From Terebella lapidaria (Eukaryota; Annelida; Polychaeta; Terebellida; Terebellidae): a stretch of 64,000 bases of DNA. Below the pieces are notes generated by a model. The model saw only the letters and a list, made by a program, of their open reading frames with translations. It was not told the origin of the DNA and searched no databases. The translations under genes were made by a program, and so were the position numbers. The stretch's first letter is position 1; each line of letters starts with the position of its first letter. Shown here one piece after another: positions 3,130-62,550 of this stretch. Where the stretch lies: the NCBI GenBank assembly GCA_949152475.1, contig OX424562.1, positions 868,001 through 932,000 of the forward strand, written 5' to 3'.

Positions 3130-3714
3130 CACAACCTAAATAGTTGGACTAGAAATCCTCAAAAATGCACCTGCGTGTCTTTTCACGTATTTTTTCCCCA
3201 ATAGGAGTGTTATTTGTTACTTGCCGGAATCTGGTTCGTTCGTGGATTTGTTTGTTTGTGTGTTTCTTTACAGCCTAGCGTCCACAGTTCTTATCTGATT
3301 TCATGCAAACCTGGTGTACATAATCTCTAGAATACTGGGCAGAAAACGTCCTTTTTTGGTGTGTCTAGGTCAAAGGTCAAGGTCAACGTCACACAAAACG
3401 TCAAAAACACGTAAGTGGCCATAACTGCGATTCTAATCGTCCTAGAGACTTCAAACCAAGTTCATATTGTAGAGAAACTCGAGTTCTATCTTCCATGACC
3501 CTGACCTCGACATTTGACCTTGCCAAATTCGCCTGAGGTCGAATATTTGACCTTAAAGGTCACCACCTCCGATTTTCGATCTGATGCTTGGAAATGACAT
3601 TGGACTGGTACCTTGTGCTCAATGTCAATTTTTAGCCCGATCGGCTTATTCGTTATGACGTAATTGACGTTTCCATGGCAACGAGAACGGTCCCATTATA
3701 GCCGAAATTGCATT
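3130..3714. repeat. Probable dispersed repeat, unclassified
   Basis: This AT-rich stretch has low-complexity GT runs near 3246-3266 and repeated short AGGTCAAAGGTCAAGGTCA-type motifs (3369-3388) like those in the neighbouring minisatellite core. It reads straight into the core units at about 3715, so it may be the 5' part of that element copy. A degenerate GTTACTTGCCGGA at 3217-3229 could be its worn left end. No gene is seen. Confidence 0.35.
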
Positions 3715-4454
3715 TCCGAAGCTGTAAAGTCGATAATAAGCGATATATTGGCCATTTTTACCCGTGATCTTGAAAATTAGGTCAAATATCAAGTTCAAGG
3801 TCATGACAATATTCAGAATACATCATTTCCTATATGTTCACAATTGATTCCTAAGCTGTAAAGTTGATAATAAGCGAAATATTAGCCCTTTTGTCCTTTG
3901 ACCTTGAAAATAAGGTCAAAAGTCAAATTCAAGGTCACAAGAATATTCAGCATATATCATTTCCTATATGTTCATAATTGATTCTTAATCTCCAATCTCC
4001 ATATTAAGTGAGATATTAGCAATAATGTGTTGCGTAAAAATGCATAGGCGAATATAACATGGGGAAGTGCTATTTGGGACCCGTCGAAAAATCGAAATGG
4101 CTGCCACACGCAGACCGGCGATTCAAGGGCAACGAAACTTATACACAACATAAAGGTATATTAGAGGAATCTTTTGAAACAAAAACCTGAAATCTGATCT
4201 GAAAGTTTTTGAGAAAACGACCGTCAAAGTCCAAAAATAGCCGTTCTTCGACAAGAATGGCCGCCATTTTAGAAAAAATGAGAAAATAAAAAAACTTTAA
4301 AATACCTTCCTCTCGAAATATTTTAGGCATTTCTGTGCAAAATTTCGGGAAGATTCGATCCTAAACTTTAAAGATATTAATGTTGACCGACGACGACGGA
4401 CGACGGACGCAACGCCATGGCAATAGGTTTATCGGACCAAAGGTCCGGTAACCT
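3715..4454 (+). mobile_element. Minisatellite-cored non-autonomous element with intact right end
   Basis: Two core units (AAGCTGTAAAGTCGATAATA and AAGGTCAAATTCAAGG types) are followed by the complete family tail. The tail has CGACGACGGACGACGGACGC (near 4391-4411), then ACGCCATGGCAATAGG and a terminal palindrome in which ACCAAAGGTCCGGTAACCT closes the element at 4454. The left end is not clear. No coding capacity is seen; short ORFs in the tail are not conserved between copies. Tandem core plus an ACGG-rich tract plus a unique tail is reminiscent of pearl/CvA-type elements described in bivalves, but the inverted GGTTACCGGA ends in other copies point to a TIR-type element. Confidence 0.65.
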
Positions 4455-4888
4455 AAAAATCGCAAGAATCATTGCGTTTATCAAAGATTATTTCTCCCAT
4501 GATTTATGTACTTTTCCATGGTTAATTCCCAACCATTTGATAAAATCCCGTTTTTCGCCCAGGTCAGAAATGTAAGGCTCATCAGTTTTGACTTTAGTAA
4601 CTAAATCTGAAGGGGCGAGGGTCTGCAATCTCTGATTGTCTCGTTTGTTTTGTGACCTAGTTCAAACATAGCGAATAAGCTGAAATCGCCTTGCAACAAA
4701 AGATACAAAGCACTGAGATTGGCGGTAATGTCAACAAATTCAAACGGTCTCAACCCGAAACTCACTCGCAATGAAATCCACGAGAAAGGGTCACATATTG
4801 TACAAATTTCAAGTGCATATGTTCGTGTTTTCTTCCTACTGTCATAAATGTTCGATCACTTTCTGCCGATGCACGTCCATAAAGTATG
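4455..4888. other. Interval without recognised gene
   Basis: Between the minisatellite-cored element and the foldback MITE I see no supported gene, RNA or repeat family. Confidence 0.5.
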
Positions 4889-4890
4889 TA

Positions 4891-5458
4891 TACTCTGATT
4901 TTTCTAACTTGTTTACACTGGTTTTTGGCGATATTTCTGCGATGCTAAAAGTTATCGTTCCATAACTTAGCATACTTCACCTGGGAGCCAAACGGCAATT
5001 TGCTACCAAATTTCAGACTGCTATCGCAAAAATTGAAGAAGTTGGCTATCTACCCCAATGTTAAATGTCAACCCAGAATGGGATCTCGAGAATCTGAGCA
5101 TATTAGAGAATTTCGTCTTGTTTACATTAATCGCGATTTGAAATATAATTGTAATTTTGGACAAGAAGACACAATGAGGTGTATTCTAGACAAACGTGTT
5201 GATTTCGAAAGATTACACAGCTACAAAACCGAGTAAATGCACAAAATTGTGTGCGGACCCAGAATTTGAATGACAGGGCTAAATTTAACATTGGGGTAGA
5301 TTGCTAACTTTCTCAATTTTCGCAATAAAAGTCTGAAATTCGGTAGAAAATTGCCGTTTGACTCCCAGGTGAAGTATGCCAAGTTATAGAATGATACTAT
5401 TTAGCATCACGGAAATGTCAGCGAAAAACAGTGTAAACGAGTTAGAAAAATCAGAGTA
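4891..5458. mobile_element. Foldback MITE with TA target-site duplication
   Basis: Terminal inverted arms of about 180 bp each (4891-5068 and 5282-5458) pair nearly throughout. Both begin TACTCTGATTTTTCTAAC and include CATACTTCACCTGGGAG and ATCTACCCCAATGTTAAAT. They flank a spacer of roughly 210 bp. TA dinucleotides at 4889-4890 and 5459-5460 look like the target-site duplication expected for Tc1/mariner-type transposases. The element has no gene; small ORFs across the arms are chance. The good arm match suggests moderate age. Confidence 0.8.
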
Positions 5459-5701
5459 TAGCTGACGCGATCACTGGCTGGCTTACTCCAGTAATAGATG
5501 TCATTCGTTGATAGTTCAGTGAACTCATTCAGTAATACAAATCTGTTCTGCATGATATCATTACCTCTATACTTCTGAACACATCCAGTGTCATTTGTTT
5601 CCAAATTACAACCAACTGGATTATCACAAATCTCAAACAGGATAATACGCTATTGTTGTGATAAGTTAACTTGTTATCTAACCAATCTCAGCAAGAACAA
5701 C

Positions 5702-5709
5702 GAGTTTCA
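5702..5709 (+). repeat. Left 8-bp target-site duplication of the OTU element
   Basis: GAGTTTCA lies immediately left of the terminal GGTATATG. The identical eight bases lie immediately right of the opposite terminus at 18043-18050. Confidence 0.85.
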
Positions 5710-5763
5710 GGTATATGTTCCATGGTAACGCCTATGAAACTTTTAAAATGATAAGAGATATGC
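5710..5763 (+). repeat. Left terminal inverted repeat
   Basis: Begins GGTATATGTTCCATGGTAAC and pairs with the reverse complement of 17991-18042, with a few mismatches and a 2-bp length difference. Confidence 0.85.
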
Positions 5764-5817
5764 ATCAAACAAGGGTATTTTCATGGGTTTTATTAGTGAT
5801 GTTCATGGCATACATGG

Positions 5818-8800
5818 CATATGTCGTAATGCCACGAGACCACGTCCATGGTCCATGGTCCGCACAGTCTACCCAATGTGACAATAGTGACATGCATGGC
5901 ACCAGAAAGCCAGAGAGGGCTATTTTCAATGCCACCAATGCCATCATATGTCACAATGTCACGAGACGTCCACGACTGTACCATCATGGCATATTAGCTG
6001 TCACCATCCGAACAGCATGTCCAGCCTGACATGATGACACCAGAACCCCAAAGAGGGCTATTTTCTATGCCACCAATGTCATCATATGTCACAAAGCCAC
6101 GAGACGTCCACGACTGTGCCATCATGGTATATTACCTGCCACCATCCGCACAGCATGTCCAGCCTGACAGGATGACACCAGAGCCCCAGAGAGGGCTATT
6201 TTCAATGCCACCAATGTCATCATATGTCACAATGTCACGAGACCCCACGACTGTGCCATCATGGCATATTATCTGCCACCATCCGCACAGCATGTCCAGC
6301 CTGACATGATGACACCAGGACCCCAAAGAGGGCTATTTTCTATGCCACCAATGTCATCATATGTCACAATGCCACGAGACGTCCACGACTGTGCCATCAT
6401 GGCATATTATCTGCCACCATCCGCACAGCATGTCCAGCCTGACATGATGACACCAGGACCCAAAAGAGGGCTATTTTCTATGCCACCAATGTCATCATTT
6501 GTCACAATGCCACGAGACGTCCACGACTGTGCCATTATGGCATATTACCTGCCACCATCCGCACAGAATGTCCAGCCTGACATGCATGGCACCAGAACCG
6601 CAGAGAAGGCTATTTTCTATGCCACCAATGTCATCATATGTCACAATGCCACGAGACGTCCACGACTGTGCCATCATGGTATATTACCTGCCACCATCCG
6701 CACAGCATGTCCAGCCTGACATGATGACACCAGAACCCCAGAGAGGGCTATTTTCTATGCCACCAATGTCATCATATGTCACAATGCCACGAGACGTCCA
6801 CGACTGTGGCATCATGGCATATTACCTGCCACGATCCGCACAGCATGTCCAGCCTGACATGCGTGGCACCAGAACCCCAGAGAGGGCTATTTTCTATGCC
6901 ACCAATGTCATCATATGTCACAATGCCACGAGACGTCCACGACTGTGCCATCATGGCATATTAGCTGCCACCATCCGCACAGCATGTCCAGCCTGACATG
7001 ATGACACCAGAACCCCAAAGAGGGCTATTTTCTATGCCACCAATGTCATCATATGTCACAGTGCCACGAGACGTTCACGACTGTGCCATCATGGCATATT
7101 ACCTGCCACCATCCGCACAGAATGTCCAGCCTGACATGCATGGCACCAGAACCCCAGAGAGGGCTATTTTCTATGCCACCAATGTCATCATATGTCACAA
7201 TGCCACGAGACGTCCACGACTGTGCCATCATGGTATATTACCTGCCACCATCCGCACAGCATGTCCAGCCTGACATGATGACACCAGAACCCCAGAGAGG
7301 GCTATTTTCAAAGCCACCAATGTCATCATATGTCAAAATGTCACAAGACACGCACGACTGTGCCATCATGGCATATTACCTGCCACCATCCGCACAGCAT
7401 CTCCAGCCTGACATGATGACACCAGAACCCCAAAGAGGGCTACTTTCTATGCCACCAATGTCATCATATGTCACAATGCCACTAGACGTCCACGACTGTG
7501 CCATTATGGCATATTAGCTGCCACCATCCGCACAGCATGTCCAGCCTGACATGATGACACAAGGACCCCAGAGAGAGCTATTTTCTATGCCACCAATGTC
7601 ATCATATGTCACAGTGCCACGAGACGTCCACGACTGTGCCATCATGGCATATTAACTGCCACCATCTGCACAGAATGTCCATCCTGACATGCATGGCACC
7701 AGAACCCCAGAGAGTGCTATTTTCTATGCCACCAATGTCATCATATGTCACAATGCCACGAGACGTCCACGACTGTGGCATCATGGCATATTACCTGCCA
7801 CCATCCGCACAGCATGTCCAGCCTGACATGCATGGCACCAGAACCGCAGAGAGGGCTATTTTCAAAGCCACCAATGTCATCATATGTCAAAAAATGTCAC
7901 GACACCCACGACTGTGCCATAATGGCATATAACCTGCCACGATCCGCACAGCATGTCAAGCCTGGCATGCATGTCACCAGACCCCCAGGGAAGGCTATTT
8001 TCAATGCCACCAATGTCATCATATGTCACAATGTCACGAGACGCCCACGACTGTGGCATCATGGCATATTACCTGCCACCATCCGCACAGCATGTCCAGC
8101 CTGACATGATGACACCAGAACCCCAAAGAGGGCTACTTTCTATGCCACCAATGTCATCATATGTCACAATGCCACGAGACGTCCACGACTGTGCCATTAT
8201 GGCATATTAGCTGTCACCATCCGCACAGCATGTCCAGCCTGACATGATGACACAAGGACCCCAGAGAGAGCTATTTTCTATGCCACCAATGTCATCATAT
8301 GTCACAGTGCCACGAGACGTCCACGACTGTGCCATCATGGCATATTACCTGCCACCATCCGCACAGAATGTCCAGCCTGACATGCATGGCACCAGAACCC
8401 CAGAGAGTGCTATTTTCTATGCCACCAATGTCATCATATGTCACAATGCCATGAGACGTCCACGACTGTGGCATCATGGCATATTACCTGCCACCATCCG
8501 CACAGCATGTCCAGCCTGACATGCATGGCACCAGAACCCCAGAGAGGGCTATTTTCAAAGCCACCAATGTCATCATATGTCAAAAAAATGTCACGACACC
8601 CACGACTGTGCCATAATGGCATATAACCTGCCACGATCCGCACAGCATGTCCAGCCTGGCATGCATGGCACCAGACCCCCAGGGAGGGCTATTTTCAATG
8701 CCACCAATGTCATCATATGTCACAATGTCACGAGACGCCCACGACTGTGGCATCATGGCATATTACCTGCCACCATCCGCACAGCATGTCCAGCCTGACA

Positions 8801-11800
8801 TGATGACACAAGGACCCCAGAGAGAGCTATTTTCTATGCCACCAATGTCATCATATGTCACAATGCCACGAGACGTCCACGACTGTGCCATAATGGCATA
8901 TTACCTGCCTCGATCCGCACAGTATGTCCAGCCTGACATGCATGGCACCAGAACCCCAGAGAGGGCTATTTTCTATGCCACCAATGTCATCATATGTCAC
9001 AATGCCACGAGACGTCCACGACTGTGCCATCATGGCATATTAGCTGCCACCATCCGCTCAGCATGTCCAGCCTGACATGCATGGCACCAGAACCGCAGAG
9101 AGGGCTATTTTCAATGCCACCAATGTCATCATATGTCACAGTGCCACGAGACGTCCACGACTGTGCCATCATGGCATATTAGCTGCCACCATCCGCACAG
9201 AATGTCCAGCCTGACATGCATGGCACCAGAACCCCAGAGAGGGCTATTTTCTATGCCACCAATGTCATCATATGTCACAATGCCACGAGACGTCCACGAC
9301 TGTGCCATCATGGCATATTACCTGCCACCATCCGCACAGCATGTCCAGCCTGACATGATGACACCAGAACCCCAGAGAGGGCTATTTTCAAAGCCACCAA
9401 TGTCATCATATGTCAAAATGTCACAAGACACGCACGACTGTGCCATAATGGCATATTACCTGCCACGATCCGCACAGTATGTCCAGCCTGACATACATGG
9501 CACCAGAACCCCAGAGAGGGCTATTTTCAATGCCACCAATGTCATCATATGTCACAATGCCACGAGACACCACGACTGTGCCATAATGGCATATTACCTG
9601 CCACGACCCGCACAGTATGTCCAGCCTGACATGCATGGCACCAGAACCCCAGAGAGGGCTATTTTCAATGCCACCAATTTCATCATATGTCACAGTGCCA
9701 CGAGACGTTCACGACTGTGGCATCATGGCATATTACCTGCCACCATCCACACAGCATGTCCAGCCTGGCAGGCATGGCACCAGACCCCCAGGGAGGGCTA
9801 TTTTCAATGCCACCAATGTCATCATATGTCACAGTGCCACGAGACGTCCACGACTGTGGCATCATGGCATATTACCTGCCACGATCCGCACAATATGTCC
9901 AGCCTGACATGCATGGCACCAGAACCCCAGAGAGGGCTATTTTCAATGCCACCAATGTCATCATATGTCACAATGTCACGAAACGCCCACGACCGTGACA
10001 TCGTGGAATATTACCTGCCACTATCCACACAGTGTGTCCAGCCTGACATGCATGGCACCAGAACCCCAGAGAGGGCTATTTTCAATGCCACCAATGTCAT
10101 CATATGTCACAATGCCACGAGACGTCCACGACTGTGCCATCATGGCATATTATCTGCCACCATCCGCACAGCATGTCCAGCCTGACATGATGACACCAGG
10201 ACCCAAAAGAGGGCTATTTTCTATGCCACCAATGTCATCATTTGTCACAATGCCACGAGACGTCCACGACTGTGCCATTATGGCATATTACCTGCCACCA
10301 TCCGCACAGAATGTCCAGCCTGACATGCATGGCACCAGAACCGCAGAGAAGGCTATTTTCTATGCCACCAATGTCATCATATGTCACAATGCCACGAGAC
10401 GTCCACGACTGTGCCATCATGGTATATTACCTGCCACCATCCGCACAGCATGTCCAGCCTGACATGATGACACCAGAACCCCAGAGAGGGCTATTTTCTA
10501 TGCCACCAATGTCATCATATGTCACAATGCCACGAGACGTCCACGACTGTGGCATCATGGCATATTACCTGCCACGATCCGCACAGCATGTCCAGCCTGA
10601 CATGCGTGGCACCAGAACCCCAGAGAGGGCTATTTTCTATGCCACCAATGTCATCATATGTCACAATGCCACGAGACGTCCACGACTGTGCCATCATGGC
10701 ATATTAGCTGCCACCATCCGCACAGCATGTCCAGCCTGACATGATGACACCAGAACCCCAAAGAGGGCTATTTTCTATGCCACCAATGTCATCATATGTC
10801 ACAGTGCCACGAGACGTTCACGACTGTGCCATCATGGCATATTACCTGCCACCATCCGCACAGAATGTCCAGCCTGACATGCATGGCACCAGAACCCCAG
10901 AGAGGGCTATTTTCTATGCCACCAATGTCATCATATGTCACAATGCCACGAGACGTCCACGACTGTGCCATCATGGTATATTACCTGCCACCATCCGCAC
11001 AGCATGTCCAGCCTGACATGATGACACCAGAACCCCAGAGAGGGCTATTTTCAAAGCCACCAATGTCATCATATGTCAAAATGTCACAAGACACGCACGA
11101 CTGTGCCATCATGGCATATTACCTGCCACCATCCGCACAGCATCTCCAGCCTGACATGATGACACCAGAACCCCAAAGAGGGCTACTTTCTATGCCACCA
11201 ATGTCATCATATGTCACAATGCCACTAGACGTCCACGACTGTGCCATTATGGCATATTAGCTGCCACCATCCGCACAGCATGTCCAGCCTGACATGATGA
11301 CACAAGGACCCCAGAGAGAGCTATTTTCTATGCCACCAATGTCATCATATGTCACAGTGCCACGAGACGTCCACGACTGTGCCATCATGGCATATTAACT
11401 GCCACCATCTGCACAGAATGTCCATCCTGACATGCATGGCACCAGAACCCCAGAGAGTGCTATTTTCTATGCCACCAATGTCATCATATGTCACAATGCC
11501 ACGAGACGTCCACGACTGTGGCATCATGGCATATTACCTGCCACCATCCGCACAGCATGTCCAGCCTGACATGCATGGCACCAGAACCGCAGAGAGGGCT
11601 ATTTTCAAAGCCACCAATGTCATCATATGTCAAAAAATGTCACGACACCCACGACTGTGCCATAATGGCATATAACCTGCCACGATCCGCACAGCATGTC
11701 AAGCCTGGCATGCATGTCACCAGACCCCCAGGGAAGGCTATTTTCAATGCCACCAATGTCATCATATGTCACAATGTCACGAGACGCCCACGACTGTGGC

Positions 11801-13907
11801 ATCATGGCATATTACCTGCCACCATCCGCACAGCATGTCCAGCCTGACATGATGACACCAGAACCCCAAAGAGGGCTACTTTCTATGCCACCAATGTCAT
11901 CATATGTCACAATGCCACGAGACGTCCACGACTGTGCCATTATGGCATATTAGCTGTCACCATCCGCACAGCATGTCCAGCCTGACATGATGACACAAGG
12001 ACCCCAGAGAGAGCTATTTTCTATGCCACCAATGTCATCATATGTCACAGTGCCACGAGACGTCCACGACTGTGCCATCATGGCATATTACCTGCCACCA
12101 TCCGCACAGAATGTCCAGCCTGACATGCATGGCACCAGAACCCCAGAGAGTGCTATTTTCTATGCCACCAATGTCATCATATGTCACAATGCCATGAGAC
12201 GTCCACGACTGTGGCATCATGGCATATTACCTGCCACCATCCGCACAGCATGTCCAGCCTGACATGCATGGCACCAGAACCCCAGAGAGGGCTATTTTCA
12301 AAGCCACCAATGTCATCATATGTCAAAAAAATGTCACGACACCCACGACTGTGCCATAATGGCATATAACCTGCCACGATCCGCACAGCATGTCCAGCCT
12401 GGCATGCATGGCACCAGACCCCCAGGGAGGGCTATTTTCAATGCCACCAATGTCATCATATGTCACAATGTCACGAGACGCCCACGACTGTGGCATCATG
12501 GCATATTACCTGCCACCATCCGCACAGCATGTCCAGCCTGACATGATGACACAAGGACCCCAGAGAGAGCTATTTTCTATGCCACCAATGTCATCATATG
12601 TCACAATGCCACGAGACGTCCACGACTGTGCCATAATGGCATATTACCTGCCTCGATCCGCACAGTATGTCCAGCCTGACATGCATGGCACCAGAACCCC
12701 AGAGAGGGCTATTTTCTATGCCACCAATGTCATCATATGTCACAATGCCACGAGACGTCCACGACTGTGCCATCATGGCATATTAGCTGCCACCATCCGC
12801 TCAGCATGTCCAGCCTGACATGCATGGCACCAGAACCGCAGAGAGGGCTATTTTCAATGCCACCAATGTCATCATATGTCACAGTGCCACGAGACGTCCA
12901 CGACTGTGCCATCATGGCATATTAGCTGCCACCATCCGCACAGAATGTCCAGCCTGACATGCATGGCACCAGAACCCCAGAGAGGGCTATTTTCTATGCC
13001 ACCAATGTCATCATATGTCACAATGCCACGAGACGTCCACGACTGTGCCATCATGGCATATTACCTGCCACCATCCGCACAGCATGTCCAGCCTGACATG
13101 ATGACACCAGAACCCCAGAGAGGGCTATTTTCAAAGCCACCAATGTCATCATATGTCAAAATGTCACAAGACACGCACGACTGTGCCATAATGGCATATT
13201 ACCTGCCACGATCCGCACAGTATGTCCAGCCTGACATACATGGCACCAGAACCCCAGAGAGGGCTATTTTCAATGCCACCAATGTCATCATATGTCACAA
13301 TGCCACGAGACACCACGACTGTGCCATAATGGCATATTACCTGCCACGACCCGCACAGTATGTCCAGCCTGACATGCATGGCACCAGAACCCCAGAGAGG
13401 GCTATTTTCAATGCCACCAATTTCATCATATGTCACAGTGCCACGAGACGTTCACGACTGTGGCATCATGGCATATTACCTGCCACCATCCACACAGCAT
13501 GTCCAGCCTGGCAGGCATGGCACCAGACCCCCAGGGAGGGCTATTTTCAATGCCACCAATGTCATCATATGTCACAGTGCCACGAGACGTCCACGACTGT
13601 GGCATCATGGCATATTACCTGCCACGATCCGCACAATATGTCCAGCCTGACATGCATGGCACCAGAACCCCAGAGAGGGCTATTTTCAATGCCACCAATG
13701 TCATCATATGTCACAATGTCACGAAACGCCCACGACCGTGACATCGTGGAATATTACCTGCCACTATCCACACAGTGTGTCCAGCCTGACATGCATGGCA
13801 CCAGAACCCCAGAGAGGGCTATTTTCAATGCCACCAATGTCATCATATGTCACAATGTCACGAGACTTCCACGACCGTGACATTGTGGCATATTACCTGC
13901 CACGAGC
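5818..13907 (+). repeat. 139-bp satellite array, left arm
   Basis: Roughly 58 tandem copies of a 139-bp unit. Landmarks per unit are GTCATCATATGTCACAATG, CCACGAGACGTCCACGACTG, the short palindrome TGCCATCATGGCA, CATCCGCACAGCATGTCCAG and GAGAGGGCTATTTTC. Units alternate between variants (for example ATGATGACACCAG or ATGCATGGCACCAG after CAGCCTGAC). Near 7.89, 8.58, 11.63 and 12.32 kb some carry a few extra A residues. The first and last units are the most diverged, as is common at array edges. Because 139 = 3x46+1, the frame rotates from unit to unit and long chance ORFs arise in both directions; none is considered a gene. Confidence 0.95.
6347..13850 (+). repeat. Higher-order duplication of 3,743 bp within the satellite
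   Basis: The block at about 6.35-10.09 kb recurs at about 10.09-13.85 kb with a constant offset of 3,743 bp (27 units). Every variant and private change I compared in the first block is found at +3,743, including all translated segments. The copies are nearly or fully identical, so the event is recent or an assembly duplication. Confidence 0.9.
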
Positions 13908-14387
13908 CGCACAGTATATCCATCCTTATATATATAAATGTACATGATAAACAGTTCAATACCAATATATTTTGTTTTATTAAGTTCGAAATTCATGCAC
14001 AATGTATGCGAATACATGTGTATATATAACAGCTTATAGTTGACTATGAACAAAAAAATTTATACACATACATGTTATGAGACACATATACAATATCTAA
14101 CATGTTATAATGAAATGAAGGTTGCATGTGCCTCTTTGAGTCATATGAATTGTGCATCAATGATATGTACATAGATCTATAAAATATATAAGAAACAATA
14201 GATCTACCTGATCGCGGAAATAAGCCACAAAGAAGGTTCACGCTATCCAAAGAAAATATTTAATTAGAATCAGAATATTGTAAAAACACCAACACCCACT
14301 AGCTTATTGGATCACATACCACACATACTTGCATGATAGAAAATGACAGAGGGACGACGTGAAGTCGATGGGTACGTTTTACAGTAA
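13908..14387. other. AT-rich spacer between left array and OTU gene
   Basis: No gene is recognised. It lies at the 3' side of the minus-strand OTU gene and so probably contains its 3' UTR and polyadenylation region. Confidence 0.5.
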
Positions 14388-15743
14388 TCAATTAAGTCTT
14401 TTCTTCACAATTGTCAGTACCTTATCAAATGTTAACTGTACCAAAGTCATGTGTATCTCCTCGAAATATTCAATAATTGTGTTAAATGCAACCATAACTG
14501 TGTTTGCCAGCTTTCTGATATCAGTTATTTCAGGATAATATTGACCTATCAGTGCATGTAGTACTAACAGAGAAAACGAATTGGCTCTGTTTGAATCAAC
14601 TTCAGCTCTTTCTTGACTGTTCAGGAAGTAATTGTCCAAGTTCGACAGGTCCATTCTCAACGAGCTGTACGAATTCTTTTTTCGTTTCTTCCGTGAATGC
14701 ACCATATTCGCACATGTATGTGCCTTTGCTTTCTCCCTTATTCCATATGGGTTTGAACAAGACACACATTTGCATAATGCTGTACAGCTTCGTTTAGATT
14801 TCAAACATGGACATCGAGACACCCTTGGCTTTGCATGTAATGACGATGAACGACATATGTCAATACAGCTTACCAAATTTGTTTTTTTATATTCACCACA
14901 CCTACATTTATGTGCTGATTCATTGGGATCAGACATAGACACATGTGAACTGCCAGTATCTCCTGGTACAGTCTGAAGTTCTGTTTCTGTGTTGTTCAAA
15001 CTTGATCCTTGATTGGGAATTAATACATCATAATGACCACTACCAACGTGGTTGTACGCGAGGGTAACAACACACTCTGAGTGTTCTGGAACCGACATAT
15101 CGTGTGGCAATACGTTCACGACAGGCACCGTTTGTAAACTTGTCAGGAATATTAATGGCAACCTCAAGACATTGGCCATGGCCAGGGGCATTGCATCGCC
15201 TAGCTCTGTATCATGAACACCAGAATGGATGAATTGGGAAGCTATCTCTGTGATATGGGTTTCACCGTGCATAAATGGCTGGTACCTATCAAAGTTTGTT
15301 ATCCATTCATCAACGACCAATCGACGCAGGAGGAGAGCCATTTCATTCAGTGGCATGGTCCCATCAATGCCGAGGTGTATTAAATGAGTTCTTGTCATTG
15401 CTGTGGCACTAGAATCTTATGCTTGTGTACTTGCCATCATTCTTCGTAAATGCCAGGACACCGCTGTGAAGAAGCAATTACCGTCACCCATACATACATA
15501 CATACATACATACAGTGCTGGGCCAATGCCAATCGTTGCTAAATCCACAAATGAAATTGACTGTGGAAAGTAACTTTTCAATGCATAGTTCAATAGCCAC
15601 AATCTGACAGAAGTGCCTACTATTTCCCCCATGTTCTGTTCATTAAGTGTATCCTTGGAATCGCCATGATGGCACAGTCGTGGATGGTGGCAGGTAATAT
15701 GCCATGATGGCACAGCCGTGGAAGTCTCGTGGCACTGTGACAT
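14388..15743 (-). CDS. OTU-domain cysteine protease with CXC cysteine-rich region (cargo of the 12.3-kb element)
   Basis: OTU proteases usually remove ubiquitin from proteins. Within one frame on the minus strand, GDGNCFFTAVS (coding near 15455-15488) supplies the catalytic Asp/Cys signature. About 150 codons later, SGHYDVLI (His near 15033) supplies the catalytic His; spacing and order fit an OTU domain. After it come HKCRCGEYKK and CPCLKSKRSCTALCKCVSC, matching the Tesmin/TSO1-like CXC pattern, then a basic KKRKK tract (possible nuclear signal) and a helical C-terminus. One in-frame TAA (15417-15419) falls between the Cys and His parts; it could be a real nonsense change, a sequencing error, or lie in an unseen intron, though GT-AG pairs around it would give only ~22-31 nt. 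The first ~26 residues are translated satellite, and a TGTA microsatellite encodes YVCMYVCM just before the active site, so the true start is uncertain. No promoter was identified. Confidence 0.7.
15490..15515. repeat. Short CATA/TGTA microsatellite in the OTU gene
   Basis: About six CATA units lie immediately upstream (coding sense) of the OTU active-site codons. They are either translated as alternating Tyr-Val-Cys-Met or lie in an unrecognised intron. Confidence 0.8.
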
Positions 15744-17860
15744 ATGATGACATTGGTGGCATTGAAAATAGCACTCTCTGGGGTTCTGGTGCCATGCATG
15801 TCAGGCTGGAAATACTATGCGGATGGTGGCAGGTAATATGCCATGATGGCACAGTCGTGGACGTCTCGTGGCACTGTGACATATGATGACATTGGTGGCA
15901 TTGAAAATAGCCCTCCCTGGGGTTCTGGTGCCATCCATGTCAGGCTGGACATGCTGTGCGGATGGTGGCAGGTAATATGCCATGATGCCACAGTCGTGGG
16001 CGTCTCGTGACATTGTGACATATGATGACATTGGTGGCATTGAAAATAGCCCTCCCTGGGCTTCTGGTGCCATCCATGTCAGGCTGGACATGCTGTGTGG
16101 ATGGTGGCAGATAATGTGCCATGATGGCACAGTCGTGGGGTCTCGTGGCACTGTGACATATGATGACATTGGTGGCATTGAAAATAGCCCTCCCTGGGGT
16201 TCTGGTGCCATGCATGTCAGGCTGGACATGCTGTGCGTATCATGGCAGGTAATATGCCATAATGGCACAGTCGTGGACGTCTCGTGGCACTGTGACATAT
16301 GATGACATTGGTGGCATTGAAAATAGCCCTCCCTGGGGTTCTGGTGCCATGCATGTCAGGCTGGACATGCTGTGTGGATGGTGGCAGGTAATATGCCATG
16401 ATGGCACAGTCGTGGAAATCTCGTGGCACTGTGACATATGATGACATTGGTGGCATTGAAAATAGCCCTCTCTGGGGTTCTGGTGCCATGCATGTCAGGC
16501 TGGACATACTCTGTGGATGGTGGCAGGTAATATGCCATGATGTCACAGTCGTGGACGTCTCGTGGCACTGTGACATATGATGACATTGGTGGCATTGAAA
16601 ATAGCCCTCCCTGGGGTTCTGGTGCCATCCATGTCAGGTTGGACATGCTGTGCGGATGGTGGCAGGTAATATGCCATGATGCCACAGTCGTGGGCGTCTC
16701 GTGACATTGTGACATATGATGACATTGGTGGCATTGAAAATAGCCCTCCCTGGGGCTCTGGTGCCATGCATGTCAGGCTGGACATGCTGTGCGGATGGTG
16801 GCAGATAATGTGCCATGATGGCACAGTCGTGGGGTCTCGTGACATTGTGACATATGATGACATTGGTGGCATTGAAAATAGCCCTCTCTGGGGTTCTGGT
16901 GCCATGCATGTCAGGCTGGACATGCTGTGCGTATCATGGCAGGTAATATGCCATAATGGCACAATCGTGGACGTCTCGTGGCACTGTGACATATGATGAC
17001 ATTGGTGGCATTGAAAATAGCCCTCTCTGGGGTTCTGGTGCCATGTATGTCAGGCTGGACATGCTGTGCGGATGGTGGCAGGTAATATGCCATGATGGCA
17101 CAGTCGTGGAAATCTCGTGGCACTGTGACATATGATGACATTGGTGGCATTGAAAATAGCCCTCTCTGGGGTTCTGGTGCCATGCATGTCAGGCTGGACA
17201 TGCTGTGCGGATGGTGGCAGGTAATATGCCATGATGCCACAGTCGTGGACGTCTCGTGGCACTGTGACATATGATGACATTGGTGGCATTGAAAAATAGC
17301 TCTCCCGGGGGGTCTGGTGCCATGCATGCCAGGCTGGACATGCTGTGCGGATCGTGGCAGGTAATATGCCATGATGGCACAGTCGTGGACGTCTCGTGGC
17401 ACTGTGACATATGATGACATTGGTGGCATTGAAAATAGCCCTCCCTGGGGGTCTGGTGCCATGCATGCCAGGCTGGACATATACTGTGCGGATCGTGGCA
17501 GGTAATATGCCATGATGGCACAGTCGTGGATGGTGGCAGGTAATATGCCATGATGGCACAGTCGTGGAAGTCTCGTGGCACTGTGACATATGATGACATT
17601 GGTGGCATAGAAAATAGCTCTCTCTGGGGTCCTGGTGTCATCATGTCAGGCTGGACATGCTGTGCGGATGGTGGCAGCTAATATGCCATTATGGCACAGT
17701 CGTGGACGTCTCGTGACATTGTGACATATGATGACATTGGTGTCATAGAAAATAGCCCTCTCTGGGGTTCTGGTGCCATGCATGTCAGGCTGGACATGGT
17801 TCGGTTCGTGGCAGGTAATATATGCCATGACGTCTTGTGACATTGTGATGTATGATGACA
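15661..17860 (-). repeat. 139-bp satellite array, right arm (inverted)
   Basis: About 16 copies of the same 139-bp unit as the left arm, in reverse orientation (GACATATGATGACATTGG, GGCATTGAAAATAGCC, GCCATGATGGCACAGTCGTGG). Short ~40-bp internal duplications (GTGGATGGTGGCAGGTAATA) mark both ends, near 15.68 and 17.53 kb. Units near 17.8 kb are degenerate and lead to the terminal inverted repeat. With the left arm this forms an inverted repeat of up to ~2.2 kb around the OTU gene. Confidence 0.95.
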
Positions 17861-17990
17861 GTGCATGACATTGTGACGTATGGTGACATTAGATCTACAT
17901 GTCATGTCAGGATGGATGGATATATCCATGATGGTACAGTCGGGTTGAATTCCAATGCCACCAATGCACTGGTGCTATGGATTATGCCAG

Positions 17991-18042
17991 GCATATCTCT
18001 CATCATTCCAAGTTTCATGGGCGTTACCATGAACCATATACC
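17991..18042 (-). repeat. Right terminal inverted repeat
   Basis: The reverse complement begins GGTATATGGTTCATGGTAAC and aligns with the left terminus. Confidence 0.85.
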
Positions 18043-18050
18043 GAGTTTCA
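18043..18050 (+). repeat. Right 8-bp target-site duplication
   Basis: GAGTTTCA, identical to 5702-5709, directly abuts the end of the inverted repeat. Confidence 0.85.
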
Positions 18051-19438: not shown

Positions 19439-19833
19439 TGTAGAATATTTATGACTGTTAGCGGCCCGAAACCCTCCCTTACACTTTATCCCACTCGATA
19501 TACACGGCACAGATTCATCACATGACTTCGTACTCATGAGAACCGACGAGTTTGAGAGATTTAGAGAGTGAGGACGTGTCTCTAAAATATTGAAGAAGTT
19601 AAAGAAGATTATAAACGAGATATCTGTGATATAACATTCCACGTGTCGGACTATTAATCGGACTATTTCGGGAGGTGTGAAAGAGGCCGTGATCGTGCCA
19701 TTGGACTTATCATCCTAATAAACTTGGATTAATCGAATTCGGACTGGTTTGTGATATTTCAAGCACAATGCTACGAACACTATACGCTAGTAAAAGGGCT
19801 GATGGGACCCTGAAGAATCCCGATTTTGTAACA
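19439..19833 (+). repeat. Left LTR
   Basis: 395 bp, starting TGTAGAATATTTATGACTG and ending TTTTGTAACA. It matches the right LTR apart from a 192-bp segment present only on the right. Confidence 0.85.
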
Positions 19834-19850
19834 TTGGTGCCGTGACCAGG
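19834..19850 (+). promoter_or_regulatory. Primer-binding site
   Basis: TTGGTGCCGTGACCAGG directly follows the left LTR; the TGG start fits pairing with a tRNA 3' CCA. The tRNA species is not assigned. Confidence 0.6.
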
Positions 19851-22992: not shown

Positions 22993-25344
22993 GTGTGTCG
23001 GACTTGTGCCTGGAGGTTTCTGTGGCACACGTCAGTGTCACTGCGGCCGGGCATGTCGTCCAAGGATGAGAAAGAAGGCGGACTTTCACCGGCTCGTGCT
23101 GAGAGCCCTATCGTTGTCGAGAATGAATCGGACACGCCCGTACCATCACCAGCTCCCGTCGTCATCAACGATGAGTGTATAGCCGTTGAGGTTATAGAAC
23201 AGAGGGACGTCCGTGAGCATCCGATCGAGATTATGGACGCGGACACCGTCAGAGAGCGTCCCGGAACAGCCCCGAGGAGCGGAAGCCCAAGGAGCCGAAC
23301 CCCCGCTCACCCTGCAGCAGCGCGTCATCCGCAACTTACAGCTGCGAGGGAGACGACATACGCCAAGTCTGCCACCAGATCAGTTAGCAGACTTAAGCGA
23401 CCCGCGACTGGAACAGCTCCAGGAAGGAAGCCGGATTGTGGAGTGCGCCCTGGCTGCACAGCGACAGTCACCAGTCAAGGTCGCTGCCTCTTCCGCCACC
23501 TTCGCCGCTATCGCCGCCCCACCGGCGATCGTATCGACGCCCGCTACGACGGCGCCGGTACTCGTACCCGCCACACGACCTGTCGCATCTCCAGCACAGC
23601 CCTCAGGGCTGCCACCTGCAGCAGGACCATCAGCGCCAGCTCCGAACCCGGATCGGGGACCCGGGATTACTCCGTTCCGACGTCAAGTAAACGAGCTGAT
23701 GGCGCTTGTCCCAGCACCCATTACGCCGATCGAAACCCGCACCATCCGTTGGGACGAAGTCCCGATTAGTCAGCACACGCGACTCGCCGGATACGGGCCG
23801 GAACATGATTACGCAGTCCTGTTGACTCTGTCCAAGGTTCAGATTATGACCTTACGCGGAATCCGCCTAGACAACAGGCGGTATGACTGCCCCTTCTGCT
23901 CTGGAACAGAAGAGCCCGCGGATCTTTGTTGTGGCCAACCTTGAGTCGCCGCGGACCATTCCGTACGCCCCAGGAATTGGACGTGCATGTCCTGGCGTAC
24001 CACTTCCCGTTCATCAGGTTTTACATCTGCCCGGCGAACGACGGATTCATGACTCTCACCCAGGCCGACATGGTGCGCCACTTGTCCACACCTACGGATG
24101 AGCACATCTTGCGTTTTCCGCTATTCAAACGCGGACGTCTGACGGCGACCCCACAGATTGTGAGGAGGTTTACCGCGAGGTGCCACGTGGATATGCAGCC
24201 GAATCCGCACTATCGGCCGCCGTGCGTACCCGCTCACCTCGTTATCTTCCGCCGGACCCCGACGTCTGTTTTGACCTTCGGCATTTGGCTGATGGCCCCG
24301 GAATTAATGGAACAGTATCCGCCGAACCTTGTGCCACACGTCATGCTGGTGCTCCAACGGATTGAGGCCCCGAACATAAACACCAGGAAGGGCGAAGTCC
24401 GTCTTGCTAACACGGTCGGCGAAATCCAGACCATCAATCCACAGGTGCGATACCGCCGACCTGGAGCCTTCTTGTTCCCGCGGCCGATCACCTATCAGAC
24501 CTCGCCATGAAGGCGCCTGAGGCGCGCCGACCAGCGCCTGCGCAACCACGAACGAACTATCGGCCGCCGTGCGTACCCGCTCACCTCGTTATCTTCCGCC
24601 GGACCCCGACGTCTGTTTTGACCTTCGGCATTTGGCTGATGGCCCCGGAATTAATGGAACAGTATCCGCCGAACCTTGTGCCACACGTCATGCTGGTGCT
24701 CCAACGGATTGAGGCCCCGAACATAGACACCAGGGAGGGCGAAGTCCGTCTTGCTAACACGGTCGGCGAAATCCAGACCATCAATCCACAGGTGCGATAC
24801 CGCCGACCTGGAGCCTTCTTGTTCCCGCGGCCGATCACCTATCATACCTCGGCCATGAAGGCGCCTGAGGCGCGCCGACCAGCGCCTGCGCAACCACGAA
24901 CGAACGGGTCGCCAACGCGGACCCGACCTTCGGAATCAGACCGTACTAAGCCTGTGGTGCAACGACCCACAGCTTCTAATGTGACGGACTACCGGGTCCG
25001 GGAGGGCCTAGTGCCACCCCCGGAGGAGTACTCGCCTCTTCCCAGCCGACCATCCATGTCTCCGGACGGAGGAACGCCGCCAACTCCAGGAGCAGCTTCA
25101 GCGCTTGGACACTGCTCGTGCAGAACTACAGCGCGAAGTGAACCAGCTCCGTACCCAGATCGCCCAGACTCCCGCACCGCAGCCGGAAGCCACTGGGGAG
25201 GCCGCGAGTCTTCCCAGCGAACTGGTCTCAACCATTGTTCGAGTTCTACCGCACTTGCCCCATGAGGAGGTGCTTGAACTCATGGCGCACACTTCTCCCG
25301 CCACACCAGCTCGGACTCAGAGGAGGCGCGATCAGCCTAAGTAG
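22993..25344 (+). other. Unidentified protein-like region in the pol position of the LTR element
   Basis: GC-rich, coding-like sequence occupies the place where pol would be. Visible traits are a Pro/Ala-rich stretch, a Cys pair in YDCPFC near 23.88 kb and another possible metal-binding stretch FYICPANDGF..VRH near 24.02-24.08 kb. A duplicated 347-bp block and a C-terminal helix with coiled-coil character (LQREVNQLRTQI) near 25.13 kb follow. None of the known pol domains is seen. It may be a captured or novel gene of the element; function unknown. Fossil, interrupted. Confidence 0.45.
24211..24904 (+). repeat. 347-bp tandem duplication inside the LTR element
   Basis: 24211-24557 and 24558-24904 are direct copies differing at only a handful of bases, both starting TATCGGCCGCCGTGCGTACC. 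The duplication is recent relative to the element. Confidence 0.9.
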
Positions 25345-26003: not shown

Positions 26004-26596
26004 TGTTATGTAGAATATTTATGACTGTTAGCGCCCAGAAACCCTCCCTTACACTTTATCTCACTCGACATACACGGCACAGATTCATCACATGACTTCG
26101 TACTCATGAGAACCGACGCACACCGTCCAAGACATGTAAACAACTCCACAGATGACGTCATGCAGAACACACCACCAATCACAATATTTTCAGACACCTA
26201 ACCACGCCCACACAGACGTTACCTCACATTCAGCAACTCACATGAACTCCTGTTCCACGACGCGGGAAAAACCAGACACCCATGAAAAAGTCCCCGCGCT
26301 TTTCGGAGTCGAGTTTGAGAGATTTAGAGAGTGAGGATGTGTCTCTAAAATATTGAAGAAGTTAAAGAAGATTATAAACGAGATATCTGTGATATAACAT
26401 TCCGCGTGTCGGATTATTAATCGGACTATTTCGGGAGGTGTGAAAGAGGCCGTGATCGTGCCATCGGACTTATCATCCTAATAAACTTGGATTAATCGAA
26501 TTCGGACTGGTTTGTGATATTTCAAGCACAACGCTACGAACACTATACGCTAGTAAAAGGGCTAATCGGACCCTGAAGAATCCCGATTTTGTAACA
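26004..26596 (+). repeat. Right LTR, with an extra 192-bp segment
   Basis: It corresponds to the left LTR but carries 26119-26310 between ACCGACG and GAGTTTGAGAG. The segment is either an insertion on this side or a deletion from the left LTR. The start is 26004 (TGTTATG, abutting the purine tract) or 26009 (TGTAGAAT, matching the left LTR start). Confidence 0.85.
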
Positions 26597-26814
26597 TATG
26601 CAACAATTGAAAGATTTTATCCAGTGGAGTAGTTTAGTTTTATAGAATGTCAATATCAATTATTTGTGACATCATGTTAACTTATGCTAAAAGTCGTCAC
26701 AGTGAGGAAAACGTCACAAGGGTCTATCCAAAAAATAATCAAGCTAATTAAACCTTTATTTCAACAAACACGACTCCACAATTGTTCTGCAGTCTGCATG
26801 TAATCAATGCAACA

Positions 26815-27099: not shown

Positions 27100-27449
27100 C
27101 GCAATAAATGTACACATATAATGACGAAGGATCATTTATCCAAACGGTATAGGTACAATCGGCCTAGAGACAATCAATTGTCGTTCAGAGGTGACCAAGA
27201 CGGATTATAAAGTTGCATATCTCATGCAGAGTATGCATTCATACGTCTTTTGATAAAAGAAGAAACAGAATCATATGGTGCCGTTGAAAACGACTGCACA
27301 AAATATCGGTGAAACGCGCACTACGGAAATCCCATTCTTCTGCTTCTGAGCATACAAAGTCGTGTGTGAGCGTCTCGTTTTGTCATTGTGGGCTTCAGAA
27401 CAGATGTCGCATTCGGGACAACGGATGCTGAATCATCACGACTGTTTTT
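27100..27449. other. Interval with only a weak coding hint
   Basis: On the minus strand 27432-27271 reads FSIRCPECDICSEAHNDKTR and on to RSHTTLY before a stop. It loosely resembles the second half of a B-box zinc finger, as in TRIM proteins. It is too short and isolated to call a gene. Confidence 0.2.
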
Positions 27450-28863
27450 AGGTTACCGCACCTTTGGTCAGATAAGCTATTGGCATGGCGTTGCGTCCGT
27501 CGTCCGTCCGTCCGTCCATCGTCCATAAACAATTTTATCTTTAAAAGTTTACGGTCGAATCTTTCTGAAATTTTGCACAACAATGCCTAAAAATATTTCA
27601 AGAAGGAGGTATTTTTAAGTTTTTTGATTTTCGCAATTATTTCAAAATGGCAGCCATTTTCGACAAAAAAAACCCAGCTAATTTTGGACTTTGACGGTTG
27701 TTTTCTCCAAATCTGTTCAATAACTTTTTTTTCTTATTGAAGCATAACACTTCTCACATGTACCCCTGTGACGTGTATAAGTTTCGGTGCTTTTGAATCG
27801 CTCGAAGTGGGCCATTTTGGGCCCAAATTCGGCCCAATTGGGACTTTCCCATGTTAAATTCTGTTATGCTTAATAATGGGACACATTATGCCTAATATCT
27901 CACTTCGTATTGAGGTTATAGACTAGGAATAAATTGTAAACATATAGGAAATGATATATGCTGAATATTATCGTGACATTGAATTTGACCTTTGACCTCA
28001 TTTTCAAGGTCACAAGTTAGAATGGCTAATATCTCGCTTATTATCGACTTTACAGCTTAGGAATCAATTGTGAACATATGGGAAATGATATATACGGAAT
28101 ATTTTCGTGACCTTGAGTTTGACCTTTGACATCATTTTCAAGGTCACAGGACAAAATGGCCAATATCTTGCTTTTTATCGACTTATGAGCATATAGGAAA
28201 TGATATATGCTGAATATTCACGTGACCTTGAATTCGACCTTTGACCTCATTTTCAAGGTCACAGGACAAAATAGCTAATATCCTGCTTATTATCGATTTT
28301 ACTGCTTAGGAATCAACTGTGAACATATAGGAAATGGTATATTATGAATATTCTCATGACCTTGAATTTGACCTTTGACATAAATTTCAAGATCAGTCAT
28401 CTTATTTTCAAGGTCAGAATACAAAATGGTTTATATCTCGCTTATTATCGAATTTACAGCTTCGAAGTCTATAGTAAACATATAGGAAATGATGTATGTT
28501 GAATATTTTGGTGATCTAGAATTTGACCTTTGATCCCATTTTCAAGGTCAGAGAACCAAATGGCTAATATCTCGCTTATTATCGACTTTACAGCTTAGGA
28601 ATCAATTGCGAATATAGAGGAAATGATATAATTATGCTGAATATGAACCTCATATGCTGAAAATGAACCTCATTTTCAAGGTCACATCACAGAATGGCTA
28701 ATATCTCACTTATTATCGACTTTACAGCTTAGGAATCTAATGTGGACATACTAGAAGTGATATATTTGTTGAATATTTCATGACATTGAATTCATTAATG
28801 ACTTTATTTTCAAGGTGACTGGACAAAAGGCTAATATATAAAATGTATATTGTCCGGTAACCT
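27450..28863 (-). mobile_element. Minisatellite-cored element, complete, inverted
   Basis: Read on the plus strand it starts AGGTTACCGCACC and ends TGTCCGGTAACCT, so both ends are inverted copies of AGGTTACCGGA. The tail comes first here (TTGGCATGGCGTTGCGTCCG, then CGTCC repeats at 27498-27520), followed by about seven ~134-bp core units (AAGGTCAAATTCAAGG type, reversed). 1,414 bp in total. No target-site duplication is obvious. Several core units are diverged, so it is older than the 51855-54660 copy. Confidence 0.75.
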
Positions 28864-48300: not shown

Positions 48301-49446
48301 TCTGACCCAGAAAGTAGACAGTGGCTACAGTCATAGGTGTTATATGTGGTCTGTCTGACTCAAAAAGTAGACAGTGGCTACAGTCATAGGTGTTATATGT
48401 GGTCTGTCTGACTCAGAAAGTAGACAGTGGCTACAGTCATAGGTGTTATATGTGGTCTGTCTGACTCAGAAAACAGACAGTGACTACAGTCATAGGTGTT
48501 ATATGTGGTCTGTCTGACTCAGAAAGCAGACAGTGACTACAGTCATAGGTGTTATATATGGTCTGTCTGACCCAGAAAGTAGACAGTGGCTACAGTCATA
48601 GGTGTTATATGTGGTCTGTCTGACTCAAAAAGTAGACAGTGGCTACAGTCATAGGTGTTATATGTGGTCTGTCTGACTCAGAAAGTAGACAGTGGCTACA
48701 CTCATAGGTGTTATATGTGGTCTGTCTGACTCAGAAAGCAGACAGTGACTACAGTCATAGGTGTTATATGTGGTCTGTCTGACTCAGAAAGCAGACAGTG
48801 ACTACAGTCATAGGTGTTATATGTGGTCTGTCTGACTCATAAAACAGACAGTGACTACAGTCGTAAGTGTTATATGTGGTCTGTCTGACTCAGAAAGCAG
48901 ACAATGACTACAGTCATTGGTGATATATGTGGTCTGTCTGACTCATAAAGCAGACAGTGACTACAGTCATAGGTGTCATATGTGGTCTGTCTGACTCAGA
49001 AAGTAGACAGTGACTACAGTTATAGGTGTTATATGTGGTCTGTCTGACTCAGAAAGTAGACAGTGGCTACAGTCATAGGTGTTATATGTGGTCTGTCTGA
49101 CCCTGAAAGTAGACAGTGACTACAGTCATAGGTGTTATATGTGGTCTGTCTGACCCAGAAAGCAGACAGTGACTACAGTCATAGGTGTTATATGTGGTCT
49201 GTCTGACCCAGAAAGTAGAGAGTGGTTACAGTCATAAGTGTTATATGTGGTCTGTCTGACTCAGAAAGCAGACAGTGGCTACAGTCATAGGTGTTATATG
49301 TGGTCTGTCTGACTGAGAAAGTAGACAGTGACTACAGTCATAGGTGTTATATGTGGTCTGTCTGACTCAGAAAGCAGACAGTGACTACAGTCATATGTGT
49401 TATATGTGGTCTGTCTGACTCAGAAAGGAGACAGTGACTACAGTCA
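30352..49446 (+). repeat. 53-bp minisatellite array, about 19.1 kb
   Basis: About 360 tandem copies of a 53-bp unit: AGTGACTACAGTCATAGGTG, then TTATATGTGGTCTGTCTGAC, then TCAGAAAGCAGAC. Common variants are GTAGACAG for GCAGACAG, GGCTACAG for GACTACAG, ACACTCGCTACAG, GACCCAG for GACTCAG, and a 2-bp-shorter TGTGCTGTCTG form. Each consensus unit can form a hairpin, CTGTCTG pairing with CAGACAG across a 10-base loop; the GTAGACAG variant weakens it. Variants run in blocks, showing local higher-order duplication. Stops occur in all frames and no gene is present. Confidence 0.97.
36542..40141 (+). repeat. 1,800-bp higher-order repeat inside the 53-bp array
   Basis: 36542-38341 and 38342-40141 match at a constant offset of 1,800 bp, including private variants such as CATAAAGTAGACAGGGAC, GGTTTGTATGAC, TCATGGGTGCTA and the shortened TGTGCTGTCTG units. 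Only scattered differences are seen. Confidence 0.85.
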
Positions 49447-62447: not shown

Positions 62448-62550
62448 TGTGTCCCAGACGCTCCCACGGAACCACGATTCGGATGTATCCCCCGTGGGAG
62501 CTCGTCTTCAGGCCTTTTGGCCAGTCTGGGATACGGAATTCGAGGACTGT

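What the first reader, a model, noticed from the sequence alone, without database searches (positions are those of the whole stretch)
5702..18050. A 12.3-kb DNA element that packages inverted satellite arrays around an OTU-protease gene
Inverted ends (5710-5763 and 17991-18042) and a perfect 8-bp duplication GAGTTTCA on both flanks are seen directly. They show that a megasatellite pair and a protease gene form one transposed unit. Known families with 8-bp duplications (hAT, P, Merlin, Zisupton/KDZ, some MULEs) carry a transposase; none is visible here, and the only gene is OTU plus CXC. I know of no described element with this architecture. The role of the protein in mobility or in countering host ubiquitin-based silencing is inference.
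Basis: partly seen in the sequence, partly recalled or inferred. Interest (0 to 1): 0.92.

Follow-up and report, generated by a model that had tools for sequence, protein, structure and literature searches.

The report
Foldback transposon carrying an OTU-protease gene
A piece of DNA, probably from an animal, with matching inverted ends and long mirrored repeat arrays looks like a jumping element of the known "foldback" type, unusual in carrying an interrupted gene for a ubiquitin-protease-like protein rather than a visible enzyme for jumping.

Summary
A 12,333-bp unit (5710-18042) has inverted ends (85% identical) and GAGTTTCA directly outside both; with satellites masked it is the only such pair in the window, and shuffles gave at best 18 of 24 matching end bases against 21. 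Inside lie 58 units of a 139-bp satellite, a 1.75-kb core with one minus-strand gene, and 17 inverted units (15 full). The gene encodes an OTU-type cysteine protease plus an MSL2-type CXC domain, interrupted by one in-frame TAA. No transposase family was found in Pfam scans of the gene, 23 of 23 array frames and 26 of 26 other core frames.

The claim of an undescribed architecture is not supported: foldback elements (Tetris, Galileo, Tm1, Muta1) have this plan, and OTU/Ulp1 proteases are known in Ginger1 and Helentrons. I file it as a new variant: a foldback element with an OTU-CXC gene, presumably moved in trans, superfamily unresolved. Also new to me: a nearly invariant 21-bp box in the units. 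An exact 3.74-kb duplication in the left arm is recent or an assembly artefact. Other copies could not be sought.

The parts
5702..5709 (.). left copy of 8-bp target site duplication GAGTTTCA
5710..5763 (+). left terminal inverted repeat
   Evidence: 85% identical to the right end, E about 2e-11 in the window
5764..5887 (+). left subterminal stretch with degenerate unit-like sequence
   Evidence: read by eye; a 23-nt stretch matches many array units at 91%
5888..13926 (+). left arm: 58 units of a 139-bp satellite
6342..13857 (+). exact tandem duplication: 6342-10114 is identical, 3773 of 3773 nt, to the stretch 3743 nt further on
14388..15632 (-). OTU-CXC gene (from a possible ATG at 15630-15632 to the stop codon at 14388-14390), with an in-frame TAA at 15417-15419; AATAAA starts at 13981 on the - strand
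   Evidence: the 342 open codons exceed the best of 300 shuffles of the core (167)
15474..15476 (-). codon of the predicted catalytic Cys (GDGNC motif); predicted catalytic His codon at 15033-15035
   Evidence: codons checked; the assignment as catalytic is recalled, from the motifs
14745..14921 (-). MSL2-type CXC domain with 10 Cys
   Evidence: Pfam MSL2-CXC E 7e-4, below its curated cut-off; MSL2 chain in PDB E 0.04 and 0.06; Cys positions
15682..17864 (-). right arm: the same 139-bp satellite, inverted, 15 full units and 2 partial
17865..17990 (-). right subterminal stretch with degenerate unit-like sequence
   Evidence: read by eye
17991..18042 (-). right terminal inverted repeat
18043..18050 (.). 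right copy of target site duplication GAGTTTCA

Best explanation
It is a cut-and-paste DNA transposon of the foldback architecture: short ends recognised by a transposase, arms made of tandem 139-bp units in mirror orientation, and a cargo gene in the middle. Shown: the ends, the TSD, the arms, the gene and the absence of a recognisable transposase. Inferred: an element elsewhere in the genome supplies the transposase, which binds the TIRs and perhaps the units, as tandem repeats in Galileo TIRs carry extra transposase-binding sites; the arms grew at least partly each on its own, by unequal exchange or slippage; and the OTU-CXC protein, in intact copies if there are any, acts as an accessory protein, tethered to DNA by CXC and removing ubiquitin from proteins that would otherwise be degraded or from chromatin. 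The superfamily of the transposase (MULE, P, KDZ or other) is not determined.
For: Only TSD+TIR pair found, against shuffles; TIR statistics; all 75 unit matches inside the element; one large ORF in the core with C65/OTU and CXC domains; no transposase family in Pfam among the gene, 23 array frames of at least 120 aa and 26 other core frames of at least 35 aa. Precedents: Tetris, Galileo with 7-bp TSD, Tm1 with 9-bp TSD, Muta1 with 8- or 9-bp TSD, called a type 2 foldback TE.
Against: Only one copy is known; no genome, empty site or autonomous relative could be examined. Unlike in Tetris, the units show no similarity to the TIR beyond chance. The arms are very unequal (8.0 and 2.2 kb), and the left one contains an exact duplication that may be an assembly artefact. 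The gene is interrupted, so in this copy an accessory role is not evident.
Confidence: 0.8

Rival explanations
1. A self-protecting element: the OTU-CXC protein binds the arrays through CXC (for example at the nearly invariant 21-bp box) and removes ubiquitin from chromatin or from transposition proteins there, so that the arms are protein landing pads rather than by-products. This is a sharper form of the best explanation, not an exclusive alternative.
For: The 21-bp box CACCAATGTCATCATATGTCA is conserved at 0.997 over 47 distinct units against 0.943 on average; 0 of 5,000 column permutations reach it; the best 23-nt windows of the two arms taken apart overlap at the same place (start 44 and 46 of the unit); 53 exact copies in the left arm and 15 in the right, none elsewhere in the window. 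The CXC domain of MSL2 is described as DNA-binding, and tandem CXC domains of LIN54 as binding specific DNA (PMC3447885 passages). Transposon-encoded deubiquitinases of another family (VTD) are active, and OTU domains occur in some of the same Helitrons.
Against: No binding data; units are related by descent, and homogenisation can also leave conserved blocks; MSL2 alone did not discriminate its target sequence in vitro; the LIN54-type motif TTYRAA (recalled) is nearly absent from the arrays (+ strand of each array: TTTGAA, TTTAAA and TTCGAA 0; TTCAAA 8 in the left, 0 in the right); the CXC match is below its Pfam cut-off; the gene is interrupted in this copy.
Confidence: 0.12
2. The OTU-CXC gene is a passenger, a captured host gene or a piece of another transposon, with no role in mobility, as in Pack-MULEs.
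For: In-frame stop; no transposase; Pack-MULE and Tm1 precedents of acquired sequence.
Against: 342 codons are still open in a 1.75-kb core that holds little else, and OTU/Ulp1 genes recur in unrelated transposons.
Confidence: 0.35
3. Not a transposon: a satellite array split by an inversion, with chance ends.
For: Inverted halves of one satellite are what an inversion would also leave.
Against: TIRs and a perfect 8-bp TSD sit outside the arms; the best of 100 shuffles reached 18 of 24 against 21.
Confidence: 0.03
4. The length of the left arm is partly an assembly artefact.
For: 3773 of 3773 nt identical at an offset of 3743 nt in an array whose units are on average 92% identical.
Against: A recent unequal exchange gives the same picture; two Tetris alleles differ by a duplicated unit.
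Confidence: 0.35

Closest known systems
Tetris, foldback transposon of Drosophila virilis (PMC4079207; passages and section 10 read)
   Same: TIR arms with long tandem units (about 220 bp), 8-9 bp TSDs in the three complete copies, no transposase found, long arrays inside the element that became satellite DNA
   Different: Its units share 37 bp with the outer TIR domain, while here units and TIR share nothing beyond chance; no protein-coding capacity; TIRs up to 1,735 bp
Galileo (P superfamily), Tm1 (MULE/Phantom) and Muta1 (MULE), foldback-like elements (PMC3573991 and PMC5225508: passages; PMC3169594: abstract and two sections, one of them in part)
   Same: Internally repetitive TIRs, TSDs of 7, 9 and 8-9 bp; Galileo and Tm1 also have non-autonomous copies
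   Different: All have a known transposase in at least some copies; the tandem units described are shorter (12-15 bp in Tm1 and Muta1) or fewer (2-3 of about 210 bp in Galileo F); no OTU-CXC gene in what was read
Ginger1 transposons and Helitrons/Helentrons with OTU (PMC2836005, PMC6431247, PMC9741609; passages)
   Same: OTU-type protease carried by a mobile element
   Different: There the OTU is part of the transposase or RepHel protein; no inverted satellite arms in what was read
TET/JBP-carrying DNA transposons of fungi (PMC12730594; passages)
   Same: An epigenetics-related accessory gene carried by DNA transposons; Zisupton and a Dileera family make 8-bp TSDs
   Different: A dioxygenase, carried together with a transposase gene; fungi
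Helentron-borne satellite arrays of oysters (PMC8268682, PMC12628747, PMC11136912; passages)
   Same: Satellite-like arrays carried by mobile elements in molluscs
   Different: Central arrays of Helitron/Helentron elements with subterminal inverted repeats, not mirrored arms with TIR and TSD
KolobokP of bivalves and other animals (PMC9587614; abstract and outline)
   Same: DNA transposon with an extra enzyme
   Different: Long terminal direct, not inverted, repeats; encodes a transposase

Membership tests
Foldback-type elements (architecture) | Long inverted arms with tandem repeats, bounded by short TIRs | tested here: met
Foldback-type elements (architecture) | Target site duplication at the ends | tested here: met
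   8 bp
Foldback-type elements (architecture) | Several copies in the genome with different TSDs | not testable with these tools
   no genome held; one scan of viral contigs for the ends found 0, which says little
Mutator-like (MULE) | 8-10 bp TSD and long TIR (over 100 bp), as given in PMC5225508 | tested here: met
   met only if the arms count as TIR; not specific to MULEs
Mutator-like (MULE) | MULE transposase in the element or its family | tested here: not met
   none in this copy; the family could not be searched
Zisupton/KDZ | 8-bp TSD (Zisupton, as in PMC12730594) | tested here: met
Zisupton/KDZ | KDZ transposase in the element or its family | tested here: not met
   none in this copy; the family could not be searched
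P superfamily (Galileo) | P-type transposase with THAP domain | tested here: not met
   none in this copy; the family could not be searched
Ginger1 | Integrase-type transposase with C-terminal OTU or Ulp1 | tested here: not met
   no integrase domain in the OTU protein
Helentron | RepHel protein; no TIR-type ends with TSD | tested here: not met
   TIR and TSD present, no Rep or helicase; definition partly recalled
OTU cysteine protease | OTU domain with GDGNC Cys and HY His motifs | tested here: met
   Peptidase_C65 25.6 bits against cut-off 24.3, OTU 21.5 against 23.3, both with the in-frame TAA read through; fold not confirmed, model pLDDT 36
CXC domain (MSL2/tesmin) | Nine invariant Cys with conserved spacing | tested here: inconclusive
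   10 Cys present, spacing not compared in full; Pfam 20.2 bits against cut-off 26.7

The most novel reading that the evidence does not exclude
A foldback transposon lineage whose mirrored satellite arms are landing pads for its own OTU-CXC protein: CXC reads the conserved 21-bp box in each unit, OTU strips ubiquitin from chromatin or from the transposition complex, and the satellite is kept and amplified because it serves the element.
Probability: 0.1. Interest if true: 0.85.

Novelty: new variant of a known kind. Interest (0 to 1): 0.45.

Why it matters
Satellite DNA and transposons are often linked, but which protein, if any, makes an array useful to an element is rarely testable. Here arms, a nearly invariant box and a protein with a DNA-binding-type and a deubiquitinase-type domain sit in one bounded unit, so the question can be asked at the bench. 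It would also add a further transposon type to those known to carry ubiquitin or SUMO proteases, which would argue for a recurrent need.

Tried and rejected
Inversion or chance: rejected by the TSD+TIR control. Helentron, Ginger1: rejected by anatomy. An intron removing the in-frame TAA: looked for by eye in the minus-strand sequence; the GT...AG pairs close to it would give introns of only some tens of nt, so none was accepted; no splice-site program was run. Origin of the units from the TIR, as in Tetris: not supported (left TIR 238 and 172, right TIR 269 and 244 of 300 shuffles scored as high). Relatives of the protein: none in viral contigs (12 pattern matches, none confirmed), genome contigs (358 pattern matches, none confirmed) or phages; these are viral and prokaryote collections, so the absence means little; the CXC piece alone was never searched (one search failed). 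NCBIfam and PHROGs: 0 families. Rfam: 0 matches. Structure prediction from one sequence failed (mean pLDDT 36), so no fold search was made. Weak Pfam matches of array and core frames (MEKHLA, PIGA, Guanylin, DUF1441, Zn_ribbon_RRN7, Forkhead_N, DUF2264_C, YMF19_C, Swi5, WaaY, Pertussis_S2S3, TMTC_DUF1736, PUB62-63_C; all below cut-off) are taken as chance. PDB match FtbL (E 0.006 and 0.008) lies over the CXC and C-terminal part without Cys conservation and was set aside as chance; a CTP synthase match (E 1.6) likewise. Eight full-text searches showed no foldback element with an OTU or OTU-CXC gene among the listed titles and abstract beginnings (20 of 241, 10 of 10, 20 of 69, 20 of 195, 16 of 16, 10 of 1,054, 10 of 89 and 10 of 24 papers listed); most subscription papers, and Repbase, are outside that library.
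Full report
Observation. The window carries a bounded unit at 5710-18042. Its two ends are inverted repeats of 54 and 52 nt, 85% identical over 54 columns, with an E-value of about 2e-11 in a self-comparison of the window. A pattern written from both ends matches twice in the window, at the two ends, and never in 100 shuffles. GAGTTTCA stands directly outside each end. A scan of perfect 8-bp repeat pairs 150 to 26,000 nt apart for abutting inverted repeats, satellites masked, gave this pair alone out of 5,192; in 100 shuffles (about 6,161 pairs each) the best match was 18 of 24 against 21 of 24 here. The shuffles were of the unmasked bases put end to end. An earlier scan with fewer satellites masked, for 5-10 bp repeats, listed 15 rows: 2 are this element and most others lie in or beside the 134-bp satellites. 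So the end structure is real and not chance.

Anatomy. Inside lie 58 units of a 139-bp satellite on the + strand (5888-13926), a 1.75-kb core, and 15 full and 2 partial units on the - strand (15682-17864). All 75 matches to the unit in the window (E 1e-3 or better) fall inside the element. Mean identities of full units are 0.920 within the left arm, 0.938 within the right and 0.923 between arms. Nearest neighbours nevertheless lean to the same arm: 37.5 of 47 distinct units (27.5 of 32 left, 10 of 15 right, ties shared) against 26.1 expected, reached by 4 of 2,000 label permutations. The arms thus share an origin but have grown at least partly on their own. In both arms some of the closest pairs lie five units (about 694 nt) apart (read). 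The left arm contains an exact duplication: 3773 nt without a mismatch at an offset of 3743 nt. In an array whose units differ by about 8% this is either very recent or an assembly error; I cannot tell which.

The conserved box. Over 47 distinct units the mean column conservation is 0.943, but CACCAATGTCATCATATGTCA is conserved at 0.997; 0 of 5,000 column permutations reach that for a 21-nt window (10 of 5,000 for 15 nt, 1 of 5,000 each for 23 and 25 nt, 321 of 5,000 for 31 nt). The best 23-nt windows of the two arms taken apart overlap at the same place; exact copies of the box number 53 in the left arm and 15 in the right, none elsewhere in the window. It may be a protein-binding site, but homogenisation can leave the same trace, and units are not independent.

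The gene. The core holds one large frame on the - strand, 342 codons (best of 300 shuffles 167), preceded in the same frame by a piece with the OTU cysteine motif; a TAA at 15417-15419 separates them. With the TAA read through, Pfam finds Peptidase_C65 (E 1e-5, above its cut-off), OTU (E 4e-4, just below), MSL2-CXC (E 7e-4, below) and TCR (0.018, below). Without read-through the OTU evidence is weak: the N-terminal piece gives C65 at 0.056 and the C-terminal piece gives only the CXC matches. The PDB search gives an MSL2 chain at E 0.04 and 0.06. Structure prediction from a single sequence failed. An AATAAA lies downstream. As it stands, this copy cannot make a complete protease unless the stop is bypassed.

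No transposase. The gene, 23 of 23 array frames of at least 120 aa and the 26 of 28 frames of at least 35 aa that are not the gene show no transposase family in Pfam; their few matches are all below cut-off. A transposase in many short exons or too diverged for Pfam is not excluded, but the core offers little space for one beside the gene.

What it is. Mirrored arms of tandem units with short TIRs and a TSD are the plan of foldback elements. Tetris of D. virilis comes closest: TIRs with units of about 220 bp, 8-9 bp TSDs in its three complete copies, no transposase found, two alleles differing in unit number, and long arrays that became satellite DNA (passages and section 10 of PMC4079207). 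Galileo is a P-superfamily element with internally repetitive TIRs and 7-bp TSDs (passages of PMC3573991). Tm1 is a MULE foldback element with 9-bp TSDs and non-autonomous copies carrying other sequence (abstract, section 5 and part 1 of section 11 of PMC3169594). Muta1 is an active MULE, called a type 2 foldback TE, that makes 8- or 9-bp TSDs (passages of PMC5225508). A sea urchin element is cited in PMC4079207 but was not read. These authors say that the foldback form arose repeatedly in different superfamilies, most often in Mutator, so form alone does not give the superfamily here.

The cargo. OTU or Ulp1 proteases occur in Ginger1 transposases (passages of PMC2836005) and OTU in Helentrons (passages of PMC6431247); another deubiquitinase family, VTD, spread through transposons and is enzymatically active, while transposon OTU domains had not been tested (passages of PMC9741609). 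[quoted passage not shown]). An accessory deubiquitinase in a foldback element fits this trend. I saw no OTU-CXC gene in such an element in the listings of eight searches.

How it most likely works. Shown: bounded unit, arms, gene, no recognisable transposase. Inferred: movement by a transposase made elsewhere; arms enlarged by unequal exchange or slippage; OTU-CXC as accessory protein in intact copies. Whether the cargo matters to the element or is a passenger is open; the interrupted frame speaks for decay of this copy, the still-open 342 codons for recent function.

Organism. No genome is held and the species is unknown to me; an animal is likely from the pogo-like and retrotransposon-like frames and the long satellites, which is inference.

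Verdict. It is a new variant of a known kind. The most interesting open point is whether the protein reads the box in its own arms.

Noticed in passing
2137-2413, 3714-4020, 27888-28837 (minus), 52091-54089: A 134-bp satellite with an AAGGTCAAAGGTCAA-like core, each block followed on the same side by related tail sequence (2465-2676, 4088-4459, 27445-27735, 54163-54665), which suggests another repeat-carrying mobile element.
   Followed up: partly
30352-49448 and 49693-51281: A 19-kb array of a 53-bp unit followed by a 1.6-kb array of a 38-bp unit.
   Followed up: no
19439-19834 and 26009-26597: Direct repeats of 96-98% identity (two pieces each) on both sides of frames one of which has a very weak zinc-knuckle match (E 0.19): perhaps an LTR retrotransposon.
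   Followed up: no
4889-5460: An inverted repeat of about 178 nt per arm, 86% identical, just left of the element; perhaps a small TIR element.
   Followed up: partly
57221-59133: A pogo-like DDE_1 transposase frame (57221-58363) overlapped by a second frame with a PHD-like Cys motif seen by eye (58075-59133), in different phases.
   Followed up: no
59820-64000: An 875-aa frame and an exact 397-bp direct repeat (62551-62947 and 63604-64000), perhaps a DIRS-like element (the DIRS label is recalled).
   Followed up: no
24206-24905: A tandem duplication of about 347-353 bp, 98-99% identical, inside the retrotransposon-like region.
   Followed up: no
23279-23373 (minus): ARAGORN calls a tRNA-Tyr inside a stretch with long frames; Rfam gives no match there.
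   Followed up: no
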